From NCBI RefSeq assembly GCF_030264275.1, contig NZ_CP127165.1:186001-250000 (forward strand): a stretch of 64,000 nt of DNA, given 5' to 3'. Source of the stretch: Marivivens sp. LCG002 (GTDB taxonomy: Bacteria; Pseudomonadota; Alphaproteobacteria; Rhodobacterales; Rhodobacteraceae). This document shows, piece by piece, positions 2,483 through 5,055 of this stretch; the stretch's first letter is position 1; every line of letters begins with the position of its first letter. Position numbers and translations under genes: made by a program. The notes below the pieces were generated by a model that was given only the letters and a program-made list of their open reading frames with translations, made no database searches and was not told the origin of the DNA.

Positions 2483-3325
2483 ATGAGCGAAGAACTTGAA
2501 TCAGGCGTTTGGGCGAGTGTTAAAGAAACCGTCAAGACGATCGTCTATGCTCTGCTGATTGCGGGCACGTTCCGCACGCTGTTCTTTCAGCCGTTTTGGA
2601 TCCCGTCCGGTTCTATGAAGGACACCCTTCTGATCGGTGACTTCCTCTTTGTGAACAAGATGGCCTATGGTTACTCCTATGCCTCTTGCCCGTCGATCAA
2701 GATCCCCTCGCTCGGTGTCGACATTGATGCAGAAGATTTCTGCGGTGTCTTCAAAGGAGCGGAAAAGCGTTTCCTCGGGTCCGAGCCTGAGGTTGGGGAT
2801 GTGATCGTCTTTCGCCATCCGGTCACGGGTGTTGATTTCGTAAAGCGTCTTATCGGCAAGCCCGGTGATCGTATCCAGATGATCGACAGCGTTCTTCACA
2901 TCAATGGTTCGCCCGTCGAGCTGGAACGCGTTGCCGACTTTGAAGAACCCTATGCACCGCAGGGTGCACAAAACAGTATCCCGCGTTGTGCAAACACCGT
3001 CACGAGCCAAGGCGATACCTGTATCAAAGAACGCTATATCGAGACCTTGCCGAACGGTGCAAAGCACTCGATCCTCAATATTGCGGTGCAGCGTGCCGAT
3101 GATACGGGTGTCTATACGGTTCCCGAGGGTCATTATTTCTTTATGGGTGACAACCGTGATAACTCGGTCGACAGCCGCTTCCCGCAGAGCGAAGGTGGCG
3201 TAGAATTCGTGCCCGCAGAGAATTTGGTCGGGCGCGCGGATCGCATCATCTTTAGTTCTGCAGGCCGTTCCATGCTTGCGTTCTGGACGTGGCGCATGGA
3301 TCGCTTTTTCGAGGTTGTCGAGTAA
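2483..3325 (+). CDS. lepB: Signal peptidase I
   Basis: 280 residues. This enzyme removes signal peptides from secreted proteins at the periplasmic face of the inner membrane. One N-terminal membrane segment (about residues 16-36) is followed by PSGSM with nucleophile Ser44, the general base Lys121 in DFVKRLIG, and the GDNRDNSVDSR box. A Cys pair in the region after residue 160 (IPRCAN ... DTCIKE) resembles the disulfide region of E. coli LepB. AGAGGACC lies upstream of the ATG. This copy has a complete Ser/Lys dyad and should be the working enzyme, unlike the paralogue that follows. Confidence 0.97.
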   Translation: MSEELESGVWASVKETVKTIVYALLIAGTFRTLFFQPFWIPSGSMKDTLLIGDFLFVNKMAYGYSYASCPSIKIPSLGVDIDAEDFCGVFKGAEKRFLGSEPEVGDVIVFRHPVTGVDFVKRLIGKPGDRIQMIDSVLHINGSPVELERVADFEEPYAPQGAQNSIPRCANTVTSQGDTCIKERYIETLPNGAKHSILNIAVQRADDTGVYTVPEGHYFFMGDNRDNSVDSRFPQSEGGVEFVPAENLVGRADRIIFSSAGRSMLAFWTWRMDRFFEVVE

Positions 3326-3337
3326 ACCAGAGCAGCA

Positions 3338-4378
3338 ATGTATTTTTCCCTCAACCCGATCAAACTGTTCCTCGACGGGTTCGACTGGAATGGTCGAACC
3401 TCTCGGCGGCAACTCGGGATTGTTCTGTTCTCGGGAATTTTGCCTTCTTCGATCTCGGCTCTGCTCGGATACATAGGCTATGACGCGCTCTGGGCGCGCA
3501 GCCTTCTTATCTTGTTCGCTGCGCTTTTTTTCATTCCGCTGGTGGGGCACCTTGTGCGCCGCATCAATGATCTTGGTTGGAATGGCTGGCTGGTCTGGCT
3601 TGTCGTCGTGCCCTATGTGGCCTTTGTCTTTCTTCTTGTGCTTTTGTTCAAGTCGAGGGGCTACAAGCGTCCCATCTATTCCACGCTTTGGCGTCTTGTG
3701 GGACAGGTGGCTACGGCGGTCGTTGCGCTTGTGATGTTGACGGGTGTGTTCTGGCGCCCCTATTTCGTCATTTCGGGTGCGATGAAGCCCAACCTGCTCG
3801 TCGGGGACTATGTGATCACGACCGTGTTCACGACCGACCCCGAAGTTGGTGAGATGACCGTCTTTCGGCATCCTGTTTCCGGTATCCCGACGGTGAGCCG
3901 TGTGATCGGGATCGAGGGTGACAGCGTCCAGATGCGAGGCGGCACTCTCTGGATCAACGGGGTCGAGGCAGAAACGGCTTCGGATGGCTTTTTTGACGAG
4001 GTGATGGAACCACAGGGACCTCTTGGACTACTTCCCAGATGCACCAACGGAGCCGTGGGGCAGTTCGCGAATTGCAGGAAGACCCAAGAGAGAGAAACTC
4101 TGTCGAACGGGGTTGGCTATCCGATCCTGAACATCGGAAAGACCGCGCTCGATCAAACGGGCGAGTTCACGGTTCCCGAAGGCCATGTCTTTGTGCTTGG
4201 CGATAATCGTGATAACGCAGCAGACAGCAGGATCGCCGTTGGTGCAGGCGGAACGGGATTTGTTCCGGTCGAAAATCTGATTGGCCATCCGTTGTTTGTG
4301 CTCTATTCGGTGTCGTCCGCTTGGCCTTGGGCGATCTGGACGATGCGCGTGAATAGAATTTTCGTAGGAATCGAATGA
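3338..4378 (+). CDS. DUF805-signal peptidase I fusion lacking the catalytic dyad
   Basis: 346 residues in two parts. Residues 1-110 resemble DUF805 ([10 protein letters not shown] near the start, then [14 protein letters not shown] at 71-84, with hydrophobic segments around). Residues ~120-346 align with the preceding LepB: membrane segment, [31 protein letters not shown]. The nucleophile position is Ala148 (SGAM, not SGSM) and the general-base Lys is Ser187 (TVSRVIG against FVKRLIG). Both changes read clearly in the DNA. The paired cysteines of the LepB insert are kept. It starts 12 bases after lepB and overlaps rnc by 4. I infer a membrane pseudoenzyme arising from tandem duplication; its role is unknown. 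Confidence 0.85.
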
Positions 4379-5055
4379 AACTGTCGGTCGAACTCACAGC
4401 ATTCTGCGAACGGATTGGATATCAGTTCAACAAGCCGGAATTGCTTGTGCGTGCCATGACGCATCCCTCGATGTCCTCGCCGCATCGTGACAACAACCAG
4501 CGTCTCGAGTTTTTGGGCGACCGCGTGCTCGGCCTTGTGATGGCAGAGGCTCTTTTTCGCGCGGACATGGGGGCGAGCGAGGGTGTGCTTGCGCCGCGTT
4601 TCAACGCGCTCGTCCGCAAGGAAACCTGCGCAGATGTCGCCCGTCAGGTGGAGCTTGGCTCGGTGCTCCGTCTGGGGCGGTCCGAAATGAAATCAGGTGG
4701 CCGCCGCAAACAAGCGCTTTTGGGCGATGCCATGGAAGCTTTGATCGCGGCGGTTTATCTTGACGGCGGCTTCAAGGCGGCAAGCGACGTGGTGCTGCGA
4801 CTTTGGGGCGATCGGATCGACCAGGTCGAAGAGGACGCGCGCGACCCCAAGACCTCGCTTCAAGAGTGGGCGCAGGCCCGCGGAGAAACGCCACCCGTCT
4901 ATACCGAGATCGGGCGCTCTGGCCCTGATCATCAGCCAATCTTTACCATCGAGGTCCAACTGGCCTCGGGTGCTTCCGAAAGGGCAAGCGCCGGTTCCAA
5001 ACGCCAAGCTGAACAAGCTGCGGCCAAGGCTCTTTTGAGCAAGGTAACATCATGA
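4375..5055 (+). CDS. rnc: Ribonuclease III
   Basis: 226 residues, normal length. RNase III cleaves double-stranded RNA, including rRNA precursors and structured mRNA leaders. The catalytic domain signature [19 protein letters not shown] is at about residues 40-60 and a second acidic cluster, [16 protein letters not shown], near 120. The C-terminal third ([11 protein letters not shown] ... [13 protein letters not shown]) is the dsRNA-binding domain. The ATG overlaps the stop of the pseudo-peptidase gene (ATGA) and the 3' end overlaps era by 4 bases, so translation is coupled. Confidence 0.97.

What the first reader, a model, noticed from the sequence alone, without database searches (positions are those of the whole stretch)
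3338..4378. Signal peptidase I paralogue with both catalytic residues lost and a DUF805 domain fused in front
The true LepB (2483-3325) has Ser44 and Lys121. In the adjacent paralogue the matching positions are Ala148 (SGAM) and Ser187 (VSRVIG), while the fold-defining boxes and the insert cysteines remain. An N-terminal DUF805-like membrane domain of ~110 residues has been added. The frame is intact over 346 codons, so selection seems to keep a non-proteolytic protein. A role as a regulator or substrate adapter of LepB, or a membrane sensor, is inference. This is the best candidate for an undescribed function in the window.
Basis: partly seen in the sequence, partly recalled or inferred. Interest (0 to 1): 0.72.

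Follow-up and report, generated by a model that had tools for sequence, protein, structure and literature searches.

The report
Dead signal peptidase twin beside lepB
Next to its working signal peptidase, this marine bacterium keeps a second, membrane-fused copy that has lost its cutting residues; relatives have lost them too, again and again, yet the protein is usually still preserved, which suggests a job that needs no cutting.

Summary
ORF 3338-4378 (346 aa) is a DUF805-Peptidase_S26 fusion between lepB and rnc. The catalytic Ser and Lys are Ala148 and Ser187; a third residue, a box-E Ser kept in 50 of 50 lepB rows, is Ala294. The substitutions are not conserved. Of 19 fusion-bearing genomes found among 295 of the family, 8 keep Ser+Lys, 6 lost only Lys and 5 lost both; in the window's genus 3 of 7 keep both. 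A tree of 91 rows separates lepB from all paralogues by one branch (100/94); the best tree needs 10 Lys and 5 Ser changes. Loss looks stepwise: the box-E Ser is kept in 12/12 intact, 5/11 Lys-lost and 0/6 doubly lost copies. After loss, selection is still purifying in three of the four lineages measured (dN/dS 0.11-0.21 in one doubly dead clade, 0.06 in a Lys-dead pair, 0.39 against 0.30 for lepB in genus g291) but weak in the fourth (g66, 0.55 against 0.14). So this is a retained pseudoprotease derived from an old second signal peptidase, comparable to S. aureus SpsA and S. pyogenes SipA, and mostly not simple decay. A LepB-partner or scaffold role is my best guess; that mechanism is inferred, not shown.

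The parts
2483..3325 (+). lepB, active-type signal peptidase I (Ser44, Lys121, box-E Ser228)
   Evidence: only other S26 gene found in the genome
3338..4378 (+). DUF805-S26 pseudo-signal-peptidase, 346 aa; starts 12 nt after lepB, stop overlaps the next start (ATGA)
3380..3658 (+). DUF805 membrane domain, residues 15-107; model helices 23-45, 51-79, 83-90, 94-104
   Evidence: Pfam above cut-off; AlphaFold mean pLDDT 86.6
3686..3742 (+). helix 117-135, taken as the membrane anchor leading into the S26 domain
   Evidence: model; membrane role inferred
3689..4303 (+). Peptidase_S26 domain, residues 118-322
   Evidence: Foldseek best match E. coli LepB 1t7d, E 4.7e-15
3779..3781 (+). Ala148 codon, position of the catalytic Ser
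3896..3898 (+). Ser187 codon, position of the catalytic Lys
4217..4219 (+). Ala294 codon, position of the box-E Ser (E. coli Ser278, recalled)
4040..4042 (+). Cys235, first insert cysteine
4073..4075 (+). Cys246, second insert cysteine
4375..5055 (+). downstream gene, named rnc (ribonuclease III) from recall
   Evidence: ORF; homologues in the same order in related loci; no family search run on it

Best explanation
An old second signal peptidase, fused to a DUF805 membrane domain and encoded in the lepB operon, has been turned stepwise (Lys, then box-E Ser, then Ser) into a pseudoprotease in many lineages; the window copy is an end stage with all three residues gone. What is kept is the membrane domain plus the S26 scaffold, so its retained function does not need cutting. 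The most likely function is a membrane partner or scaffold of the signal-peptide processing step, touching LepB or the preprotein near it. Shown: fold, position, residue loss, repeated loss, purifying selection after loss in relatives. Inferred: co-transcription, the order of the losses, contact with LepB, and selection on the window copy itself.
For: 18 of 19 fusion-bearing family genomes have lepB next upstream and 17 of 19 have the rnc homologue next downstream (genomes). lepB rows are one side of a branch (100/94) with all paralogues on the other. On the best tree Lys state changes 10 times and Ser 5 times. Box-E Ser kept 12/12 intact, 5/11 Lys-lost, 0/6 both lost. dN/dS (NG86) after loss: 0.11-0.21 (both lost, 6 pairs; YN00 0.08-0.16) and 0.06 (Lys lost; YN00 0.07), against 0.10 (YN00 0.15) in an intact pair. 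In genus g291 the paralogue mean is 0.39 against 0.30 for lepB, with 7 of 7 copies lacking both residues. Scaffold residues (R188, C235, G156-D157, D289, D292, D296) stay while the dyad varies (with gaps set aside). lepB keeps Ser+Lys in 50 of 50 rows.
Against: No interaction evidence exists; adjacency to lepB may only be inherited from a tandem duplication. L018 lies on another contig than its lepB, and L056 and L061 show no lepB in the stretches held. 276 of 295 family genomes showed no fusion, so the role is dispensable in the family. The paralogue evolves faster than lepB, and genus g66 erodes (0.55 against 0.14). The tree backbone is weak and long branches meet, so change counts are rough. 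Only 3 independent pairs on starred branches were usable for the stepwise order, too few for a test, and L056 breaks the order (Ser lost, Lys kept; its frame is interrupted). No relative close enough is held for a dN/dS of the window copy.
Confidence: 0.42

Rival explanations
1. A SipA-like substrate holder: the dead S26 cleft still binds signal peptides or other chains and presents them without cutting.
For: SipA of S. pyogenes lacks Ser and Lys, keeps the peptide cleft and is essential for pilus assembly (PMC4049620; abstract and the first of two parts of the Discussion read). The model matches SipA 4n31 (E 2.9e-6 and 5.7e-6, TM by target 0.71 and 0.75).
Against: Positions taken as cleft (recalled from E. 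coli) drift here: the Pro and Ser before the nucleophile and the residues before Lys vary, and an aromatic (F, Y, W) before Lys is kept in 9/12 intact but 4/17 lost copies (Fisher p 0.01, relatedness not removed). The overall test of cleft against other lepB-invariant positions is only p 0.07.
Confidence: 0.18
2. A surplus second signal peptidase in slow decay; the dead copies have no function.
For: Repeated losses, long branches, patchy presence; one interrupted copy, L056, with Ser to Asn; genus g66 with dN/dS 0.55 and eroded Cys pair and box E.
Against: dN/dS 0.06-0.21 after loss in two lineages; 7 of 7 doubly dead copies in g291 with open frames and dN/dS near that of lepB (these genomes are GC-rich, so open frames weigh less there); gene kept in 7 of 7 genomes of the window's genus; 0 of 400 neutral copies of the window gene stay open from 0.3 substitutions per site on.
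Confidence: 0.2
3. The DUF805 membrane domain is the working part and the S26 domain is a passenger or sensor head.
For: Catalytic loss was seen in 17 of 29 DUF805-bearing copies and in 0 of 5 short copies without it. In g66 DUF805 is better kept than S26 (63% against 51% mean identity).
Against: In g291 and the window's genus S26 is better kept than DUF805 (63 against 57%, 49 against 42%). Only 5 short copies were seen.
Confidence: 0.17
4. Still a protease using another nucleophile or base.
For: Ser146 and Ser187 lie near the old site (sequence).
Against: The replacing residues differ between copies (Lys to A, G, S, Q, M; Ser to A, G, T, H, D), so no new catalytic pair is conserved.
Confidence: 0.03

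Closest known systems
Staphylococcus aureus SpsA (with active SpsB)
   Same: Second type I signal peptidase homologue lacking two conserved catalytic residues, dispensable, alongside an active enzyme (PMC12445088, two passages read).
   Different: No DUF805 domain is mentioned in the passages read; the adjacency of spsA and spsB is recalled; different phylum.
Streptococcus pyogenes SipA
   Same: S26 fold with both Ser and Lys replaced and a non-proteolytic role (PMC4049620).
   Different: Encoded in a pilus cluster and working with a sortase, its cleft reported conserved; here the gene sits in the lepB-rnc order, is fused to DUF805, and the cleft drifts.
Bacterial signal peptidase I (LepB, TIGR02227)
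   Same: Passes the equivalog cut-off (100.2 against 47 bits) and has the fold.
   Different: Ser, Lys and box-E Ser lost; the stretch between the two catalytic boxes is short (9 residues by the count against 47 in the window's lepB; 30-53 in the full lepB rows).
Stand-alone DUF805 membrane proteins
   Same: Same Pfam domain.
   Different: The listed matches end before the S26 part, in many other genomes.

Membership tests
Signal peptidase I (S26) | S26 profile and fold | tested here: met
   PF10502 1.5e-30, Foldseek 1t7d 4.7e-15
Signal peptidase I (S26) | Ser-Lys catalytic dyad | tested here: not met
   Ala148, Ser187
Signal peptidase I (S26) | peptidase activity | not testable with these tools
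   needs an assay
DUF805 (PF05656) | score over the curated cut-off | tested here: met
   29.8 against 25.7 bits; 20 of 20 members of A2 match at E up to 0.01; 9 of 10 further members over the cut-off, L155 below it
SipA-like pseudo-signal-peptidases | S26 fold with both catalytic residues replaced | tested here: met
SipA-like pseudo-signal-peptidases | conserved peptide cleft | tested here: inconclusive
   cleft positions drift but p 0.07
SipA-like pseudo-signal-peptidases | place in a pilus and sortase cluster | tested here: not met
   it lies in the order acpS-lepB-gene-rnc-era (names recalled); no sortase search was run
SpsA-like dead twin of an active signal peptidase | second copy lacking catalytic residues beside an intact one | tested here: met

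The most novel reading that the evidence does not exclude
A family-wide pseudoprotease subunit: in part of the Rhodobacteraceae the signal peptidase works with a DUF805-S26 partner whose own catalysis is optional and has been discarded many times, much as non-catalytic subunits accompany the eukaryotic signal peptidase complex (recalled comparison).
Probability: 0.25. Interest if true: 0.72.

Novelty: new variant of a known kind. Interest (0 to 1): 0.52.

Why it matters
It offers a natural series of intact, Lys-lost and fully dead copies of one protease at one locus, so the change from protease to pseudoprotease can be studied step by step. It also shows that the equivalog model for signal peptidase I accepts a protein lacking its catalytic residues. 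It gives DUF805, a domain of unknown function, a testable context.

Tried and rejected
Rejected: a fixed Ala/Ser pair with new chemistry (the residues vary). Rejected: an alignment slip at the Lys (the neighbouring Arg is invariant in the 29-row set).

Spread of the fusion: among 398 phylum genomes 9 matched at E up to 1e-16 and only G000 runs on into the S26 start. Among 385 class genomes no listed match other than G000 runs from the DUF805 start into the S26 start (the list was cut, and a partial match in G551, positions 65-163 with a stop, was not read). These two samples hold few family genomes, so they say only that the fusion is not widespread. Of five other DUF805 regions fetched, three showed their DUF805 protein, none with an S26 part by eye (L169, L170, L173); for L171 and L172 the ORF listing did not show the DUF805 frame. 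A plasmid search gave 58 records, none covering 80% of the protein.

Neighbours of the displaced copies L018, L061 and L056 gave no functional hint by eye. Phylogenetic pair tests lacked power. A further intact pair, L051/L054, was computed but is saturated (dS 3.0; paralogue 0.09, lepB 0.10). The frames used run from the preceding stop, so some rows hold extra codons ahead of the start.

Papers: DUF805 with signal peptidase gave 1 paper, in whose held main text a term search found neither; DUF805 alone gave 8 listed papers, none with signal peptidase in the title or abstract start; other listings (36 and 72 show only the first 15 and 10) showed no report of this fusion; a listing for Marivivens (10 of 29 shown) was only glanced at. 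One open library was searched, and beyond PMC4049620 and PMC12445088 I saw listings only.

Rows dropped before the n=29 count: L035, L037, L052, L053, L055 (near copies), L054 (65% identical to L051) and the interrupted L056; five short copies without DUF805 were counted apart; the first L058 copy was placed by hand with the DUF805 group and afterwards confirmed by Pfam. L024 (gap of N) was left out of the trees.

Full report
What is there. The frame 3338-4378 (+) is open over 346 codons and lies 12 nt after lepB (2483-3325), with its stop overlapping the start of the next gene, taken as rnc (name recalled). It has a DUF805 domain (residues 15-107) and a Peptidase_S26 domain (118-322), both over Pfam's cut-offs, and is 36% identical to LepB. 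The genome gave only these two S26 genes and one DUF805 match. The catalytic Ser and Lys of LepB (44, 121) align with Ala148 and Ser187, and the insert cysteines remain. A further residue, the Ser of GDNRDNS, is Ala294. AlphaFold gives a confident model (mean pLDDT 86.6) whose best solved matches are E. coli LepB, with SipA also found.

Where it comes from. In the genus (unnamed grouping) 7 of 7 genomes carry it next to lepB. Two of these copies are identical to Marivivens donghaensis and M. niveibacter records over the last 200 residues compared, so the window is probably Marivivens. A profile search of 295 family genomes (294 genera) found 19 with the fusion. In 18 of 19 lepB lies next upstream and in 17 of 19 the rnc homologue next downstream; L019 ends at the contig edge and L018 lies elsewhere. 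The 21 named loci that match in the DUF805 part (L044-L064, of 80 returned) carry titles of Rhodobacterales. Class and phylum samples showed no other fusion in the rows listed.

Loss of catalysis. Of the 19 family genomes 8 keep Ser and Lys, 6 lost only Lys and 5 lost both (counted). In the genus 3 of 7 keep both, 3 lost Lys and the window copy lost both. The 50 lepB rows keep all three residues. In a thinned set of 29 DUF805-bearing copies there are 12 intact, 11 Lys-lost and 6 doubly lost; the box-E Ser is kept in 12/12, 5/11 and 0/6 (Fisher p 0.0001 for intact against lost; relatedness is not removed, and only 3 independent pairs were usable). The tree of 91 rows puts all paralogues on one side of a branch (100/94) and the best tree needs 10 Lys and 5 Ser changes (8 and 4 in an earlier tree of 83 rows); its backbone is weak. 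L056 is an exception to the order: it lost Ser but keeps Lys, and its frame is interrupted.

Selection. dN/dS (Nei-Gojobori) is 0.11-0.21 for six pairs of a clade that lost both residues (L010, L052, L053, L055), 0.06 for a Lys-lost pair (L033/L035) and 0.10 for an intact pair (L008/L037); lepB of the same genomes gives 0.015-0.07. In genus g291 the 7 copies found (8 genomes searched) all lack both residues and the mean is 0.39 against 0.30 for lepB; dS is probably depressed there by codon bias (inference). In genus g66 the 5 copies all lack Lys and 4 of 5 lack Ser, box E and the Cys pair are eroded, and the mean is 0.55 against 0.14 for lepB: here constraint is weak. Stops flagged by the search in L182 and L184 lie ahead of the DUF805 part. 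For the window copy no close relative is held, so selection is inferred from its open frame and its conserved scaffold.

What it does. The scaffold (cysteines, R188, G156-D157, box-E Asp residues) is kept while the dyad and several cleft positions drift; g66 is the exception. This fits a protein kept for its membrane and surface shape and speaks weakly against a peptide holder. Position beside lepB suggests a partner of LepB, but a tandem duplicate would sit there anyway. I therefore hold the non-catalytic, retained reading at about 0.8 and the LepB-partner reading at about 0.4.

Known ground. S. aureus SpsA and S. pyogenes SipA show that dead signal peptidases exist beside live ones and can be essential for something other than cutting. 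New here, as far as I could see, are the DUF805 fusion, the fixed place in the lepB-rnc order and the repeated, graded loss. I found no report of this in the listings, which cover one open library only; Pfam's own list of domain architectures was not available.

Noticed in passing
L058:4171-6766: Maritimibacter record with three S26 genes in a row: lepB, a doubly dead DUF805-S26 copy, and a short intact copy without DUF805.
   Followed up: partly
L156:907-2049 (-): DUF805-S26 copy with a lepB-like insert (26 residues by the count) and intact dyad; possibly a separate fusion or a conversion from lepB, though the tree keeps it with the paralogues.
   Followed up: no
L183-L187: Genus g66: DUF805 half better kept than the S26 half, Lys replaced by Met in all five, Cys pair lost; an eroding end stage.
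   Followed up: partly
L056:4881-6008: Copy with no lepB in the stretch held, an in-frame stop in the DUF805 part and Ser to Asn; the only interrupted copy seen, possibly a MAG error.
   Followed up: partly
L017, L022, L058 (6086-6766), L072, L084: Short second S26 copies without DUF805 that lie between lepB and rnc and keep Ser, Lys and box-E Ser.
   Followed up: partly
window 3338-4378: The NCBIfam equivalog for signal peptidase I (TIGR02227) accepts this protein at 100.2 bits (cut-off 47) although its catalytic residues are gone, so automatic annotation would probably call it a peptidase.
   Followed up: yes
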